NCBI RefSeq assembly: GCF_002234675.1 | Contig: NC_019862.2 | Span: 27,510,707-27,574,706 of the forward strand | DNA from: Oryzias latipes | Lineage: Eukaryota; Chordata; Actinopteri; Beloniformes; Adrianichthyidae | Direction of reading: 5' to 3' | Length of the DNA: 64,000 nucleotides | In this document: piece after piece, positions 501-33,700 of the stretch | Position numbering within the stretch: the stretch's first letter is position 1 | Layout of the letters: every line of letters starts with the position of its first letter | Translations under genes and position numbers: made by a program | The notes under the pieces: generated by a model | What the model saw: only the letters and a program-made list of their open reading frames with translations | Database searches by the model: none | Told to the model about the DNA's origin: nothing

Positions 501-671
501 CTGGTGCGCACCAGTTAGTTTCAGGTGCGCACCAGTTAGTTTCAGGTGTGCACCAGTTAGTTTCAGGTGCGCACCAGTTAGTTTCAGGTGCGCACCAGTT
601 AGTTTCAGGTGCGCACCAGTTAGTTTCAGGTGCGCACCAGTTAGTATCTGGTGCGCACCAGTTAGTATCAG
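501..671. repeat. 21-bp tandem array, eight units, each with a palindrome
   Basis: Eight head-to-tail copies of GTGCGCACCAGTTAGTTTCAG. Each unit contains the self-complementary core GGTGCGCACC (one copy has GTGTGCACC). The last two units carry TATC in place of TTTC. The array lies inside the left half of the fold-back element. Confidence 0.9.
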
Positions 672-24700: not shown

Positions 24701-27700
24701 AAGATGAGCCAACAAAGAAAAGAACTTTCGGAAGATGCTGATTATGTTGATGCCAGAATTCTGCAAAAATGCATCCTCATTTATATATGAGGAAATCTGC
24801 TGTATTTCTGTCAAAAAAGGCAAAATAATTAAGTCACTTCTTGCAGGTGAATTTTTTTAAATCATAATTTCTCTTTTAACTTCATTTATACTTATAAAAT
24901 AAAATAAAACAGACATGAATGCATGAATTAAAAGGAGCACAAAAAATATTTTTTGCATTTGTTACAGAACAATCACAGTTCTGTAACAAATGAAAAATGT
25001 TTGTACTTTTTCAACAAAACACTAACGTAATATATGTTTATTTTCAGGATGTTTTATTTGAGCTTAAATCTTTGGTGTAATCAGTTTTTTTTTGACTGAT
25101 CTATTATACAGTTTCTGACTGTTTACATTTAAATTTTGTTCTTTAATTCGGTTCCTTTTACTTTTTTCCTCAAACATCTGTTGTAATAAAGTCAGACATG
25201 TCATTTTTAACCTAAAGAAGGATGGGTTAGTGGAATCTCTGCGCTTAGAGATTCTCTTTTCTGCTGAATAAAAGCAGGATGACTCCTACAGACTTCTACA
25301 ATGGCATCTGTTATTATTCATTAAAGAATATCTGACTCCACTTTACTTGATATTTCGTCTTTCATGGTGACTTTTAGTTGAGATTTCATCAATAATAATA
25401 ACTAAATGTTGGGCTCATAGCACCCAGCCCCATGCAGGGGGTTTGAAGCTGTGCAGACTGATGCTCTCAGGCAGCACTGTGCTCAAATGTTTTCACCAAT
25501 AATAATAAAAAAGGTGCATTCATTCACAATATGAAGTTGTGAAACACTTGTGAAAATTTAATCCAGAGAAAGTGAAACTACCGCTGGAAGGCAGGACATG
25601 TTCTTGTAATTGGAAGGAAAGTGGTGATAAGACAACTACAGCAAACACTCAGAAACTCATTTTGCTTAAGGATCCTATCAAGTATATCTATGTGAATGTG
25701 AGCTGCTGTTTGCTCCAAGGTGGATCAATAACCAGGTTTCCCCTCAGACAGGACCTAACTGTGTGCTGACTCCAGCTCTGCCCCGAGGATTTCACATTTC
25801 ACAGGTCACAGCTCTGGCGGCATGCTCCAAGAGCCGGGATCAAGGCAGGGATTTGGAAAAACCCAAGGCCAAATTCCATATGAGTAAGATCCATTGAGCA
25901 GACCGGTCTCGTCTGTCTTGATTATCCGTTTGAGCACAAAGACACACATGCAGAGAAGAATCCTCTGATCCATCCCATACTCTACACTCGAGAATCTGAC
26001 CTGTCCCATCAGAGTTCAGCTGGGTGAACTGGATCGGTTCAGGAATTCCTTTGTGTCTTCACCTGTTGGCCCTTTAGAAATACCAGCCAGAACTATTCAG
26101 AGGGGACTGGTTAAGCCCGGTGTTATGAAAAGTGTTCATTCTTTGATTTATTTTGAGCTATTTTACTTGTTTCTTCATTTGCTTTGCTGTGTTTCTACAC
26201 AGAAGTCAAACGTGTCATTCAGCTGGAAATGTAATATGGAAAGAGAAATTAAGGGGATTCAGGGATCTATGAATCCTCCAGAAAGAATCCAGTCCTCAAA
26301 GCTCTGCTCCTTACCGTCGGACACAGCATGAGGTTTGATTATGCAGCACGTGCAGTCTGTAAAGGTGGCTGTGTTGGAGGGTCCGTGGCCAATTGCAGAA
26401 GGGAAAAAGAATTCTAGCTCCTAAGAAAAACAAAGAAGAAGACTGGAAACGGAGCACATGTGGATACACTGCAAGGTTTTTCACAGAAAGCCCTTACTCT
26501 TGCTGCTGCATCGAGCGACTCGGAGCCGTGCCCGACATTTTGAAGGCCGTCTGTCCCAAAGTGAGCGCGGATGCTCTGTGGGGCCTCCCTCCGTGCTGCT
26601 GCAGAATCCGCGGGTCCCAGGAGCTTCCTCCAGACAGACGTGGCCTCGTCACCCATTATCTCCATAGCAACCACAGGGCCCGAGGACATAAACTGTACCA
26701 GGTTACTGCAAAATGGAGCAATAGGAAGCGAAGTAATGATTTGAATGGAAACACGGTAAAAAAACAGAGAAGTCTAATACGGAGAGAACTCACTTAAAGA
26801 AAGACTTGGACTGATGCTCCATGTAGAAGTCTGCAGCCTGGCTCCTGCAGTCCAGCAAAAGCAGGAAGCAAAGTTAATAGGAGACCAAAAGATTACAAAT
26901 ATCCTATAAAGTTGTTCGTTTTCTATTTAAAATAAAATAATGACACCACTTGAGACTTTAGTCATTTCAAAAACATTCAGCAGTCGCTGTATTTATCTCA
27001 ATAAAGCACATTTTTGTTTATTATTGTTAATAGATCTTAGGGGGGAAACGATTCATTTCTACAACGGATCGATTCATGTCGGAATTTGTGGCTGACGATA
27101 CGGTTCATATTGGATGTTGGTTCTGTCAAGGTGCAGGGGGGCTCGAGAGCCGGTAGGACCCAGAATGCAGAGGCAGGGGCACGTGGTTCAAGGGCAAGGG
27201 GTTTAATAGTAACAAAAAGCGCTGCAGAGCAGGATGACAAAACAAAACTAAAACTTACTGTGGCATGGCGAGGGACAAGGAACAAGGCATGAACACCATA
27301 ACAGGGGTACTGGACCAACACAGGAGGAAGGCAGAGACAAGACTTATATACAGACAGGGCAGACAAGACACAGGTGGACACGATCAGGGCTGAATGGGAA
27401 CCAAAGGAAGTAAAACTCAAGAAACCAGACAAGACAGGAGACTTTCAAAATAAAACAGGAAACAGAAACAAGACAGAACAAGGACCAAAAACAAGACAAC
27501 AAAATCAAATCATGACAGTACCCCCCCCTCAAGGAACCGCTCCGAGGTTCCAAAAGTCACATGAGGGGGGGGCCCCGGAGGATAAACCTCGACGGGCACA
27601 AGAGTCCGGAGAACGGCCGGGGGTCCGCGCCGTCCGGCGAGGCAGGTCCGGAGGACGGCCGGGGGCCGAGCGGTCCGGCGAGGCAGGTCCGGAGGACGGC

Positions 27701-30700
27701 CGGGGGGCCGTGCGGTCCGGCGAGGCAGGTCAGGCGTGGTGGAGTCGTCAGGCGTGGTGGAGTCGTCAGACGTGGTGGAGTCGTCAGGCGTGGTGGAGTC
27801 GTCAGGCGTGGGGGAGTCGTCAGGCGTGGTGGAGTCGTCAGGCGTGGTGGAGTCAGGCGTGGAGTCAGGCGTGGAGTCAGGCGTGGAGTCAGGCGTGGAG
27901 TCAGGCGTGGAGTCAGGCGTGGAGTCAGGCGTGGAGTCAGGCGTGGAGTCAGGCGTGGAGTCAGGCGTGGAGTCAGGCGTGGAGTCAGGCGTGGAGTCAG
28001 GCATGGAGTCAGGCATGGAGTCAGGCATGGAGTCAGGCTCCGGCGGGTCGGGCCAGCAGTCAGGCTCCGGCGGGTCGGGCCAGCAGTCAGGCTCCGGCGG
28101 GTCGGGCCAGCAGTCAGGCTCCGGCGGGTCGGGCCAGCAGTCAGGCTCCGGCGGGTCGGGCCAGCAGTCAGGCTCCGGCGGGTCGGGCCAGCAGTCAGGC
28201 TCCGGCGGGTCGGGCCAGCAGTCAGGCTCCGGCGGGTCGGGCCAGCAGTCAGGCTCCGGCGGGTCGGGCCAGCAGTCAGGCTCCGGTGGGTCGGGCCAGC
28301 AGTCAAGCTCTGGCGGGTCAGGCGTGGAGCCGAGCTCAGGCGGGTCAGGCGTGGAGCCGAGCTCAGGCGGGTCAGGCGTGGAGCCGAGCTCAGGCGGGTC
28401 AGGCGTGGCAGTGGAACCGGGGACCCATCGGGGCGCAGGCGGCACCCCCCTGGGAGCCGGGACGGGTCGGGGCGCAGGCGGCACCCCCCTGGGAGCTGGG
28501 ATGGGTCGGGGTGCAGGCGGCACCCCCCTGGGAGCCGGGACGGGTTGGGGTGCGTCCGGGACCACCACTGGACATGGCTGTGGTGCGTCCGGGACCACCA
28601 CTGGGGGAGGTTGTGGTGCATCCGGGACCACCACTGAACGTGGCTGTGGTGCATCCCGGACCACCACTGAACGTGACTGTGGGGGACGGCGGGGACGACG
28701 GCGACGTCGACCCCCCCTCATGGCGAGACGGCTCCCAGTTTAGTCCTGCTCTGCTGGGTCCAGAAAATTTGGTTGGTCCATTCTGTCAAGGTGCAGGGGG
28801 GCTCGAGAGCCGGTAGGACCCAGAATGCAGAGGCAGGGGCACGTGGTTCAAGGGCAAGGGGTTTAATAGTAACAAAAAGCGCTGCAGAGCAGGATGACAA
28901 AACAAAACTAAAACTTACTGTGGCATGGCGAGGGACAAGGAACAAGGCATGAACACCATAACAGGGGTACTGGACCAACACAGGAGGAAGGCAGGGACAA
29001 GACTTATATACAGACAGGGCAGACAAGACACAGGTGGACACGATCAGGGCTGAATGGGAACCAAAGGAAGTAAAACTCAAGAAACCAGACAAGACAGGAG
29101 ACTTTCAAAATAAAACAGGAAACAGAAACAAGACAGAACAAGGACCAAAAACAAGACAACAAAATCAAATCATGACAGGTTCATTTTGAAAGAATCCGAT
29201 TGGAACCGATTCACTGACCCAAAACGGATCCAGAACATATTCAACCAGTGTGACTCATAGATAAATACCTGGTACTGAAAAGTTCAGGTGACGTTTTCCA
29301 GATTCCTTGTATTTCTTGCAAGATAATCAAGTGTAAATGAAATATGTGTACAAACAAACAAGTAAACAGAATGAATGTCAAATCCATTCACATTTTAGTT
29401 TCCTAAAGTTCAGTCCACTGTTGTTTTTCTACATCCAAAGAATCATGTCAGTAAATGTCTGACAGGTTGCTCCAGCACATCTGGAGGGTCATCGTGATCT
29501 CACCATGAAAGTCTGGTCATCTTAGCTTTGGTCACGATCAGGTTGGAGGAGTAAACCAATTCCATCACATCCCCGATCTTAGTCACAACATCTGGCTTTA
29601 TCAGAGCGAGAGTTCTGCACAGACGGAGACAGAAAACAGCTTCAGAGAAAACATCACAGCACCGTCACATAGTCTTCTTCAAGAACTCACAAAATGAGGG
29701 GAAAGATGAAAGAAACCTTTGACATAACTTTACTTCAGCGTCCTGTGGAGATGATGTTCACCTTTCTGATTTGCGTGTTTTAATCCTTCCATTAGCTTTG
29801 AACCCTCGCCATAATGCTGCCACCACAACACTGGTATGTGCAGCTTTTAAAGGGCCGACATCTCGCTATGCTTAAGCCTTTTACAGTAAACTATATCCAT
29901 GCGTATGACAATACCTTTGGTCCGCTAAACACATTTTTTGTCCCCCTGTCCCCAAGAACCCCCGCATAACTGGCCTCAATGACTACAGGCCTGTGGCACT
30001 CACGTCTGTAGTCATGAAGTCATTCGAGCGTCTGGTCCTCCCCCACCTCAAATCCTTCACCTCCCCCCTCCTGGACCCTCTGCAGTTCGCCTACAGAGCC
30101 AATAGGTCTGTAGACGATGCCATCAACCAGGCCCTACACTTCATCCTGCAGCACCTGGACTCCCCGGGAACCTATGCTAGGATTCTGTTCGTGGACTTCA
30201 GCTCTGCGTTCAATACCATCCTCCCCTCTCTGCTCCAGGAAAAGCTCCTCCAGCTCAACGTGCCTGACTCCACCTGCAGGTGGATCACTGACTTCCTAAT
30301 GGACCGGAGGCAGTGTGTGCGGCTGGGGAAGAATGTCTCCACCACCCAATGCATCAGCACAGGAACTCCACAGGGCTGTGTACTTTCCCCTCTGCTCTTC
30401 TCCCTGTACACTAACTGCTGCACCTCCAGCCATGACTCTGTCAAACTGATCAAGTTTGCAGATGACACCACCCTCATCGGACTCATCTCTAATGATGATG
30501 AGTCTGCCTATAGGAGGGAGGTGGACTGGCTGGGGTCGTGGTGCAGCATCAACAACCTGGAGCTGAACACCCAGAAGACAGTGGAGATGATCGTGGACTT
30601 CAGGAGAGTCACACCCCCCTCACCCCCTCTCACCCTGTCAGACTCTCCTATCAACCTAGTGGACTCTGTGCGTTTCCTCTGCACCACCATCACGCAGGAC

Positions 30701-33700
30701 CTCAAGTGGGAGCCATCCATCTGCTCTCTCCTCAAAAAGGCCCAGCAGAGGATGTACTTCCTGCGGCAGTTGAAGAAAGCCCGGCTGCCGGCCCAGATGA
30801 TGGTGCAGTTCTACACGGCCATCATTGAGTCCATCCTCACCTCCTCCATCACCGTGTGGTACACTAGTGCCACAACCAGGGACATTAACAGGCTACAGCG
30901 TATTGTGCGCTCAGCAGAGAAGGTGATCGGCTGCAGCCTCCCATCTGTCCAGGAACTATATGTCTCCAGAACCCGGGGACGTGCAGGCCGGATAGCTGCC
31001 GACCCTTCCCACCCTGGACATTCCCTACTGAAACTACTCCCTTCAGGCAGGAGGCTAAGGTCCATCAGGACCAGAACCTCCAGACACAAGAACAGTTTCT
31101 TTCCCTCTGCAGTCAGACTCTTAAACGCCCTGTAACCCCCCCCCCCCCCCCCTAAATTTCACTTCAATGTCCAATCAGTCACCAGCCCACTACCTGCACC
31201 TTGAACATTCTCAGTTTGCACTGTTTTGACACCCCTTGCACTACTGACTCTATTTATATTTTTGTTCTGTCCATTTGTAAAAATGTTGTTGCTTACTGTT
31301 CTTCTGTTTTATGTTGCACATTTGCACCGAAACAAATTCCTACTCTGTGTAGCTACACAGAATATGGCAATAAAAACTTCTTGAATCCTTGAATCCTTTT
31401 TAGGAAATATTTGTTATTATCACAGCAATTTTTTTCTGCCCGGAAGTAAGACGACTTGATCTCTGAGGCTCCGCCTTTCCCTCCTTGAAGGTGCCGTCCA
31501 TTTCATGATGTCATTCTAGAGTCGGCCTCGGCGGCGTGTCTGTGTTTCACGCACACAAAGAAAAAAACGACATCCGAACTTTTGCAAAGATGGATGTGCA
31601 TTTTGGGCAAATTAAAAGGAAAGCGTTAAGCCGATCACCGCTAGCTCCACGGAGAAAGCGAGTGTGTGTTTGCCTGGGGTCAGTGCTGGCAGCGCAGACT
31701 CTTCCTCACTTTGTGACGTCACAAAGTGGATTGGGAGGGGCTGGTGCTCATAGTGCAGGTTTTTAGAGGAATACCCAGAGAACCGTGAATTAATCAGAAT
31801 ACCACTTTGGGTTTGTTTTTGTGAGGAATTCACATTATAATACACGTAAAAGCTCTAAAAAGTTGATTTTGCATGATATAGGCCTTTTAATGAAAATAAT
31901 ATTTTAATAAATTTTCATTCATATTAATATAACTTTTTTCTTAACAATCCTATTCACAAAGGCCGCCCGGAGTATTTTCTACGCCACAAATCTGATCTTT
32001 TTCCAGCCGCATTTTTTCTTCTGTTCCTGATTCACAACGATTTGATTAAAGAAATACTCAGAAGAGCAATTTTCAGCCTAATTTTCTTTCTATATGGACT
32101 CCATGATCAGAAAAATATCAAAAGAAAAAGTTGCAAACACCAAAAACACAATTTTCATTGAACGTGACTCGAACACACCTTCCACATAAAAGAGGGTGAG
32201 CCGCATGAAATCTTAAAAACCTAATGACTTGATATGATGCAGTCAATTTTGGTCACTTTTTCTATTTTTTTTAAAATCTTATGTGAATAATGATTACATC
32301 TTTTATCAGCAAAAATGTCTGCATAAAATAAAGTAAGATTGGGGGTGGGAATTCAAAAGATTTTACTTCTACCAACTCGTTTTTCAAGCACTTTATTACT
32401 TTCTGTTTATCATGTTTATGTCACTATTTTATTTTTTGTTAAAAAAAAAAAAACTCAAAGTACATTAATCAATCTTTATCTTTTTTTTCATTTATGATGC
32501 TTTATGGTGCCTTCAACTTTGATGTGTTTTATTAAAACATGAAGTTTGTAAAACTATTTACGTAAACAGTAATGTTTTCTGATTTCCACTGACCGCTTTA
32601 CATTTTTGAGGCGTCTGGAAAAAAGCTTCTCTTCCAGTCATTCTTTTCAAGAGCTTGCACATAAATCTGAATGGTATGTGCAGTAACTAGAGGGGATAAA
32701 AGAGACTTACGTGCAGCTTAACCAATCGTACCTTTCTTTTTTGCTGCCCAGCTTGTTTCTTGTGTACTGATCTCCATAATCTATCAGATTTAGCTGCCGG
32801 GAGAAAACATTCACTCGGTTCCCAACAAACAAATCCCGTGGATGGATGTCATCATACTTGATCCTTTTTAAAAATACCCGCTGGTTTTTCACATCGAACT
32901 GTAGAGTGATAAAAAAAAACACACACACACACTCAGACTTGTAGATTGTTCAATGATTTATACATTTGAGAAGGAGGCAAAGACTGCAATCACAACCTTT
33001 AAACTATTCAATGTGTTCAAAAGCTACAGAAAAGAAATCAGTAATCAGAAATAAGTGGAATTATAATAATTATTGTTTTTTTTACCATTTCCATGGAGCC
33101 ATCGTTGGGGTAATAGAACAGCTGGAAGCGTCTCATCAGAGCTGCGATGGGGTCAAACCATTCAGCTAGAAAAGCATAGCGATCCTCCTGAAGAGACAAG
33201 AAGTCAGTCAAATTCTAAACAGCAAGAAATAAAATGCAGTGGCGTGAATCCAGTAAAACGTTTGACTAAACTTCTGATGTATGTTCAACCATGTGAGATA
33301 CAATTAAGCCTTTAGCATTGCACAGCAGGGACCCCAGTGCCAGATTTGAATGTTAAACATACCAGTATTGGTGGGATTCTGCATTATTAGCATCACCAAG
33401 ACAGAAAGTGACCATAAAAAGGGGGGGTATTTCTACTATTATTTGTATCAGCCAACATATGTCGATGCAAACTGACCAATCAGAAAACATTTCCATAAAA
33501 ACAGCTTTTTAATTTGAAATCAAAAGCACATACTAGTGTTTATTCGTCGACTGCTAAACCCTGGATTGACCTGACACGCTTTGCTAAAATCTATATTCAA
33601 TTAAAACATGTTCCGTGCTATTAAACTTATTTATATTTCAGGAGAAATAATTACAAGACACACTTAGTTCCACAGAAGAGTTAGCACCTTGCTTTCCTAG

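What the first reader, a model, noticed from the sequence alone, without database searches (positions are those of the whole stretch)
27124..29177. Recent LTR retrotransposon whose only gene is a proline-rich repeat ORF
Seen directly: 394-bp direct repeats with TGTCA...TGACA ends and one difference, GGTTC duplications, a polypurine tract and TATA boxes giving minus orientation, and a 403-codon ORF running from 62 bases after the 5' LTR to a stop in the first bases of the 3' LTR. Gag, protease, RT and integrase are absent. Known non-autonomous LTR elements (TRIM, LARD) normally lack a long ORF. An ORF that exactly spans the interior suggests it is translated, perhaps as a structural or packaging protein borrowed by a helper element. 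That role is inference.
Basis: partly seen in the sequence, partly recalled or inferred. Interest (0 to 1): 0.7.

Follow-up and report, generated by a model that had tools for sequence, protein, structure and literature searches.

The report
Fish jumping element with own proline-rich protein
This is one damaged copy of a large family of small fish retrotransposons that seem to carry no enzymes of their own, start copying by folding their own RNA, and in many other copies keep one unusual proline-rich protein gene that selection appears to have preserved.

Summary
The element is real: 394-bp LTRs with one difference, GGTTC duplications, minus orientation, no gag or pol recognised, inside an nme7 intron. 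The 403-codon ORF is there too, but alone it proves little: five of six frames are open for at least 372 codons, and about half of shuffled interiors with the same repeat layout keep a sense frame about that long.

Other copies change the picture. The family's reading frame starts earlier, at an ATG inside the primer-binding site. In long-form copies it encodes a 60-residue N-terminal domain, then proline-rich repeats. The domain has 150 scored genome matches, 144 without a stop. Its pN/pS is 0.25 in this frame, 1.61 and 0.96 in the other sense frames. The window copy lacks the domain, has a stop at codon 14, and its reported ATG is an internal codon.

The element appears to prime itself as Tf1/sushi elements do: a 9-nt segment at the predicted RNA start pairs with the binding site, and the two covary across subfamilies. 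No pol-bearing element sharing these LTRs was found; gag-bearing sushi-like relatives abound. The protein's role is inference.

The parts
27119..27123 (.). target-site duplication GGTTC (one side)
29178..29182 (.). target-site duplication GGTTC (other side)
28784..29177 (-). 5' LTR (394 bp)
27124..27517 (-). 3' LTR (394 bp), one difference from the 5' LTR
29003..29010 (-). TATATAAG box in U3 of the 5' LTR
   Evidence: sequence
28971..28979 (-). self-primer GTTGGTCCA at the predicted RNA 5' end (LTR 199-207)
   Evidence: complementary to the PBS over 9 of 9 bases; its last 8 bases are kept in 26 of 26 family LTRs aligned, the full 9-mer in 25 of 26; covaries with the PBS in other subfamilies
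28772..28780 (-). primer-binding site TGGACCAAC (interior nt 4-12); overlaps the family start codon
28884..28894 (-). possible pretzel arm in the LTR (LTR 284-294)
   Evidence: complementary over 11 bp to 28744-28754; 8 of 2000 shuffles of the leader give an 11-bp match
28744..28754 (-). possible pretzel arm in the leader (interior 30-40)
28821..28827 (-). second possible pretzel arm in the LTR (LTR 351-357), complementary over 7 bp to LTR end/leader 28779-28785
   Evidence: no control was run for this 7-bp match
28740..28781 (-). start of the family reading frame (ATG in the PBS), ended here by a stop at codon 14
27510..28721 (-).
28549..28682 (-). tandem array, 33-nt unit
28428..28550 (-). 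tandem array, 39-nt unit
28306..28408 (-). tandem array, 27-nt unit (first)
28031..28323 (-). tandem array, 27-nt unit (second)
27847..28038 (-). tandem array, 12-nt unit
27729..27854 (-). tandem array, 18-nt unit
27604..27731 (-). tandem array, 42/41-nt unit; the frame changes between units in this copy
27533..27551 (-). short hairpin (GGAACC...GGTTCC) beside the polypurine tract; both arms kept in 8 of 8 copies with a 3' end (L009 differs in the loop)
27521..27530 (-). polypurine tract GAGGGGGGGG

Best explanation
[quoted passage not shown] The family keeps its cis-acting parts: promoter, self-primer, PBS, polypurine tract and LTR ends. No gag, protease, reverse transcriptase or integrase was recognised in it; these are inferred to come in trans from gag-bearing sushi-like elements of the same genome. 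Instead the interior is one reading frame. It starts at an ATG inside the PBS, and in long-form copies it encodes a 60-residue N-terminal domain, then an RGG/arginine-rich stretch, then proline-rich repeats. Selection has kept that frame over the family's history. My preferred role (inferred, about 35% likely) is a protein that binds the element's own RNA as it is translated and helps it into the helper's particles. The window copy belongs to a short-form subfamily without the N-terminal domain and has a further stop at codon 14, so it probably does not make the family protein.
For: Self-priming: a 9-bp self-primer/PBS match at the predicted RNA start (11 of 2000 leader shuffles place a 9-bp match there) and an 11-bp arm (8 of 2000), plus a 7-bp arm without control. 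The primer core TTGGTCCA is kept in 26 of 26 aligned family LTRs. Across subfamilies the primer follows the PBS: TGGACCAGC with GCTGGTCCA in 7 of 7, TGAACCAGC with GCTGGTTCA in 3 of 3; that is 10 of the 12 readable pieces, out of 14 fetched. A gag-bearing element in L019 has an 11-bp self-primer/PBS match of its own. Coding: the 60-residue query finds 150 scored places of 344 candidates, 144 of 150 with no stop inside. On 48 copies (45 distinct) pN/pS is 0.25 in frame, 1.61 and 0.96 in the other sense frames; a 20-copy subset gives 0.23 against a column-shuffled mean of 0.89, 0 of 100 as low. Four copies found by LTR give 0.45 against 1.03 and 0.86. Four of four repeat-unit types have their lowest value among the three sense frames in the same frame. 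The main array periods are multiples of three in the six copies scanned, apart from a few composite or weak rows. Helpers: 75 scored of 3176 candidates carry relatives of the L019 gag, many in single frames of about 1440-1545 codons.
Against: Five of nine copies stop early in the family frame: codons 14 (window), 34 (L020), 54 (L010), 92 (L011) and 155 (L045). In L044 the frame changes after the N-terminal domain, and L009 reads the last array in another frame than L046. The protein search finds copies by protein likeness, so dead copies that drifted are under-counted and pN/pS is biased low. One antisense frame also has a low value, 0.43; antisense frames of the repeat units were not tested. 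Within this one copy the 25 substitutions between array units show no significant synonymous excess (11 of 25 at third positions, P 0.18). Without pseudoknots the minimum-energy fold pairs the RNA 5' end with interior 21-27, not with the PBS (-60.6 against -55.9 kcal/mol with the primer duplex forced). Two of 12 readable copies have one mismatch between primer and PBS. No helper that shares the LTR was found. Profile comparison of the N-terminal domain with the L019 gag start found nothing. There are no expression or peptide data.
Confidence: 0.72

Rival explanations
1. The N-terminal domain and proline-rich region are the front of Gag of an autonomous element not yet found. The selection seen happened in that element, and the short copies are deletion derivatives that merely inherit the frame.
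For: The leader of the window family and the gag start of the L019 element share LTR end TGACA, then GAA, and a GACCCAGC stretch at like positions. Gag-bearing relatives are abundant. Sixteen of 87 sites with this LTR end and PBS were not read.
Against: The nine interiors read are 436-1769 nt of leader, arrays and tail; Pfam was run on the ORFs of two of them, window and L009, without a match. Profile comparison of the domain with that gag start gives probability 0.1%.
Confidence: 0.2
2. The ORF is not used as a protein. A long open frame only protects the RNA from decay or keeps it loaded with ribosomes, or the arrays serve as spacer, and the periods of three are inherited from an old coding source.
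For: Arrays with periods of three keep frames open by themselves. Some copies stay open although their frame has changed (L044, L009).
Against: pN/pS of 0.25 in the non-repetitive N-terminal stretch, and 0.30-0.52 in the same frame for four of four repeat-unit types examined, is not expected of a mere open frame.
Confidence: 0.15
3. A tRNA, not the RNA's own 5' end, primes reverse transcription.
For: The PBS begins with TGG, the complement of a tRNA CCA end (sequence; general knowledge). Vertebrate tRNAs were not compared here.
Against: The R-region segment follows two separate changes of the PBS, in 10 of 12 readable copies. The 11-bp and 7-bp matches fit the pretzel described for Tf1/sushi (PMC10085805 passages).
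Confidence: 0.05
4. Only this copy matters and it is a chance open frame in a minisatellite-filled dead element.
For: stop at codon 14 and loss of the N-terminal domain.
Against: Seven copies seen share the short form (window, L011, L046, L119, L122, L124, L126), and one (L046) is open for 416 codons to 14 nt before the 3' LTR.
Confidence: 0.08

Closest known systems
Tf1/sushi group (sushi-ichi of pufferfish, Tf1 of fission yeast)
   Same: Self-primer at the RNA 5' end, PBS just after the LTR, three-duplex pretzel possible (PMC10085805, PMC6317226: passages seen). LTR ends fit the published Sushi motifs TGTYANR / CNTNACA, and the poly(A) signal lies late in the LTR (PMC3601003: passages and section 12).
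   Different: No gag, protease, RT, integrase or chromodomain recognised; the interior is one proline-rich frame whose start codon lies in the PBS.
BHIKHARI-1/-2 (zebrafish non-autonomous endogenous retroviruses)
   Same: Fish LTR elements with a single long ORF and no pol, thought to be moved by a partner element (PMC10996621, passages seen).
   Different: Their ORF is a Gag of lokiretrovirus kin. Here no Pfam or PDB relative is found for the ORF or the N-terminal domain, and priming is of the Tf1 type.
TR-GAG, TRIM and LARD elements (mostly plants)
   Same: Non-autonomous LTR elements with intact cis parts.
   Different: TR-GAG keeps a gag domain; TRIM and LARD normally lack a conserved ORF (names from the search listing and from recall; papers not read).

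Membership tests
LTR retrotransposon | near-identical direct LTRs with TG..CA ends and target-site duplication | tested here: met
   six of six paired copies checked have 5-bp duplications
LTR retrotransposon | PBS after the 5' LTR and polypurine tract before the 3' LTR | tested here: met
Tf1/sushi group | self-priming: RNA 5' end complementary to the PBS | tested here: met
   9-bp match with covariation; the RNA start is predicted, nothing is shown biochemically
Tf1/sushi group | two further PBS-adjacent duplexes with the LTR (pretzel) | tested here: inconclusive
   11-bp match (8 of 2000 shuffles) and a 7-bp match without control; covariation of the arms was not tested and the pseudoknot was not folded
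Tf1/sushi group | LTR end motifs TGTYANR and CNTNACA | tested here: met
   TGTCATG / CTTGACA; motifs from PMC3601003 passages. Copies ending CGTGACA also fit the rGmr1 motif
Tf1/sushi group | RT/integrase phylogeny and chromodomain | not testable with these tools
   no pol in the element; it works like a sushi element, membership by pol cannot be shown
Non-autonomous LTR element (TRIM/LARD type) | lacks gag and pol | tested here: met
   short interiors of leader, arrays and tail in nine of nine copies; Pfam run on the ORFs of two
Non-autonomous LTR element (TRIM/LARD type) | no conserved coding region | tested here: not met
   pN/pS 0.25 in 48 copies
TR-GAG / BHIKHARI type (Gag-only) | ORF is a recognisable Gag | tested here: not met
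   no Pfam or PDB match (one of 18 members has a chance-level Pfam row, E 0.21); no profile match to the L019 gag start. Fold not tested

The most novel reading that the evidence does not exclude
A non-autonomous retrotransposon lineage has its own long-lived gene that is neither Gag nor Pol: an orphan N-terminal domain plus RGG/arginine-rich and proline-rich repeats, whose start codon is embedded in the primer-binding site. It would act on its own RNA in cis to compete for a helper's particles, a parasite-of-a-parasite protein.
Probability: 0.3. Interest if true: 0.8.

Novelty: new variant of a known kind. Interest (0 to 1): 0.6.

Why it matters
Non-autonomous LTR elements are usually thought of as passive passengers. 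A family with at least 150 matches that keeps a non-Gag, non-Pol protein under selection raises a testable question: what good is a protein to an element that already borrows all its enzymes? The PBS doubles as the first codons of the gene, and the PBS/primer pair changes together between subfamilies. That would give a natural set of self-priming variants in a vertebrate.

Tried and rejected
Chance ORF only: rejected for the family, kept as possible for this copy. tRNA priming: disfavoured by covariation. Relation of the N-terminal domain to gag: profile comparison negative; the short DNA likeness of the leaders is left open. Relatives in viral contigs: four exact patterns, 0 hits. Prokaryote genome contigs: one pattern, 0 hits. 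Phage records, blastn with LTR and leader: none. Rfam: 0 matches in the window at gathering score. tRNA genes in the window: 0. Other copies in the window itself: none beyond a chance-level 35-nt match. The plus-strand ORF had one sub-threshold Pfam row, DUF4816, E 0.031. One search timed out and was replaced. A search with the conserved tail and one with the L019 RNase H stretch did not complete. Papers: 'proline-rich' with LTR retrotransposon, non-autonomous and teleost, 0 papers; in the listings I saw no title or abstract start that describes this family. No claim is made about repeat databases such as Repbase, which were not available. Structure prediction was not run: the N-terminal domain is absent from the window, and whole-genome loci are not among the sources that tool names.
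Full report
What is there. The element lies at 27124-29177 on the minus strand, with 394-bp LTRs that differ once, GGTTC duplications, a TATA box, ATTAAA and a polypurine tract. It sits in sense orientation in an nme7 intron: the frame at 26414-26689 matches NME7 chains at residues 154-220, and an exon-like stretch lies at about 29.5-29.6 kb (read by eye, not searched). The 403-codon ORF exists as described.

The ORF alone proves little. The interior is 72% G+C and is made of tandem arrays of 33, 39, 27, 27, 12, 18 and 42/41 nt. Five of six frames are open for at least 372 codons, and the plus strand has a longer ORF of 480 codons with a GTG start. Shuffled interiors with the same array layout keep a sense frame of at least 386 codons in 2401 of 5000 (columns permuted) and 2931 of 5000 (dinucleotides kept). 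With periods that are not multiples of three the figure is 81 of 5000. So the open frame follows from the periods. What is unusual is the number of open frames: five or more of at least 350 codons occur in 5 of 5000 and 134 of 5000 shuffles. Periods divisible by three in six of seven arrays would have P 0.007 if the arrays were independent, which they are not. Within this copy, 25 substitutions between units give 11 at third codon positions, not significant.

Other copies. The genome (G000, 734 Mb, 25 contigs) gave 40 scored LTR places of 2295 candidates. I looked beside the 40: 13 places belong to nine elements with an interior (window, L009, L010, L011, L015, L020, and L044-L046), and 27 show no family leader or tail next to the LTR by BLAST. 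At least 18 of these 27 have 5-bp duplications directly at both LTR ends, that is, they are solo LTRs (8 of 15, 10 of 12). Eight of the 40 places were viewed with only about 300 nt on each side. The nine interiors (436-1769 nt) are leader, arrays and tail; Pfam was run on the ORFs of two of them, without a match. All nine share the leader start, and eight of nine share the tail with its polypurine tract; L015 has lost its 3' part, and the 5' LTR of L044 is rearranged. LTR-LTR differences are 1 of 394 (window), 2 of 393 (L011), 5 of 392 (L009), 7 of 388 (L020), 27 of 334 (L010), 44 of 400 (L046) and 1 of 214 (L045, whose 5' LTR is partial). So several copies are young, and L010 and L046 are older or recombinant.

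The family frame. In six of the nine copies the leader carries an extra stretch, and in all nine an ATG stands at the third base after the LTR, inside the PBS region. In L045 the frame from it begins MDQPYFLDPAERDMKLLEAYC and goes on through RGG and arginines to the proline-rich repeats. From that ATG, L046 is open for 416 codons to 14 nt before the 3' LTR, L009 for 314 codons to 42 nt before it, and L044 for 394 codons but with a frame change after the domain. L015 is open past the end of its shortened interior. Early stops occur in five of nine: codon 14 (window), 34 (L020), 54 (L010), 92 (L011), 155 (L045). The window copy is a short-form copy without the domain. Six other copies read have the same short form and lack its codon-14 stop (L011, L046, L119, L122, L124, L126; the last four were read for 85-87 nt only).

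Selection. The 60-residue domain gave 150 scored places of 344 candidates at 70-100% identity; 144 of 150 have no stop inside, and open frames run up to 986 codons. I read 46 of these places as new DNA pieces (40 from about the first 92 ranks, six from low ranks) and added L015 and L045, which were already held: 48 copies, 45 distinct. pN/pS is 0.25 in the family frame, 1.61 and 0.96 in the other sense frames, and 1.24, 0.43 and 2.04 on the antisense. A 20-copy subset gives 0.23 against 0.89 (sd 0.21) for shuffled columns, 0 of 100 as low. Four copies taken by LTR, not by protein, gave 0.45 against 1.03 and 0.86. Four of four repeat-unit types, collected from the nine copies, have their lowest value among the sense frames in the same frame: 0.47, 0.30, 0.43, 0.52; one distinct 39-nt unit has a stop in that frame. 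Array copy number varies between copies, but the main periods stay multiples of three; a few composite or weak rows of the repeat finder (73, 80, 14) are not. The protein search favours conserved copies, so 0.25 is probably too low.

Self-priming. At the predicted RNA start (LTR 199-207) stands GTTGGTCCA, complementary to TGGACCAAC at interior 4-12. Two further matches, LTR 284-294 with interior 30-40 (11 bp) and LTR 351-357 with the LTR end (7 bp), would make the three duplexes described for Tf1/sushi RNAs (PMC10085805 passages). Shuffled leaders gave a 9-bp match at the start site in 11 of 2000 and an 11-bp match in 8 of 2000; the 7-bp match has no control. A fold without pseudoknots pairs the RNA 5' end with interior 21-27 rather than with the PBS (-60.6 against -55.9 kcal/mol with the primer duplex forced). 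In 26 aligned LTRs the core TTGGTCCA is kept in 26 and the full 9-mer in 25. Among 48 leaders, 21 have another PBS. I fetched the primer region for 14 of these 21, and two pieces missed the site (L093, L096). Of the 12 readable, seven with PBS TGGACCAGC have GCTGGTCCA and three with TGAACCAGC have GCTGGTTCA, all perfectly complementary. Two PBSs with single private changes keep the parental primer, one mismatch each. The pattern LTR end plus PBS occurs 87 times in the genome, 0 times in the reversed control; 58 of 87 have a scored N-domain place beside them. Of the other 29, five were already seen and eight more were read for 85-87 nt: four short form, three long form, one rearranged; each begins as this family does, what follows was not read. 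Sixteen were not read.

Helpers. L019 holds, beside a solo LTR of this family, a gag-bearing element: its stretches match Retrotrans_gag, Ty3_capsid and RNase H families, with weaker aspartyl protease rows. It has an 11-bp self-primer/PBS match of its own, and its primer is followed by TACCCC..TTATGG as here. That it is sushi-like is my reading of its gag and its self-primer; no tree was made. Relatives of its gag were scored for 75 of 3176 candidates, many with frames of about 1440-1545 codons, long enough for gag-pol, whose pol part I did not test. In 12 of 12 pieces read upstream of such gag frames the start reads ATGACAGAACG; in L019 that TGACA is the LTR end. Only one of 150 N-domain places lies within 12 kb of one of those 75. 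That such elements act as helpers is inference.

What kind of protein. The domain has no PDB match as a profile and no Pfam match beyond one chance-level row in 18 members, and no profile match to the L019 gag start. The RGG and arginine run after it suggests RNA binding (inference from composition). Hence the preferred but unproved role: a cis-acting RNA-binding or packaging protein.

Known relatives. Passages of PMC10996621 describe zebrafish BHIKHARI elements with a single Gag ORF and no pol. Passages of PMC6317226 and PMC10085805 state that self-priming is a common feature of the Tf1/sushi group. PMC3601003 (passages and section 12) gives the sushi LTR end motifs. The passages seen do not describe this family; one search found no paper with the four terms used. 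The host looks like medaka from 25 contigs and 734 Mb, which is my inference.

Noticed in passing
window 26414-26689 and about 29500-29620, minus strand: Exons of an nme7 (nucleoside diphosphate kinase 7) gene; the element lies in the intron between them, in sense orientation (first exon, second by eye).
   Followed up: partly
window 29993-31135, plus strand: 380-aa frame with reverse-transcriptase (RVT_1) and ALKBH8_N Pfam matches: probably a non-LTR retrotransposon piece beside the element, not part of it.
   Followed up: partly
window 503-671: Tandem array of eight 21-nt units.
   Followed up: no
G000 C1:33308617-33313809, C17:6806739-6813917, C1:27933522-27936944: Three to five N-domain places in a row at 1.5-2.5 kb spacing: tandem element arrays, perhaps made by recombination between LTRs.
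   Followed up: no
window 27533-27551 and tails of eight of nine copies: A 6-bp hairpin next to the polypurine tract; the tail is 95-100% identical to the window's although the LTRs of these copies differ by 3-13% from the window's. Cause unexplained.
   Followed up: partly
L010 (C16), L046 (C9): The two LTRs of one element differ much more than in other copies (27 of 334 plus gaps; 44 of 400), as if recombined.
   Followed up: no
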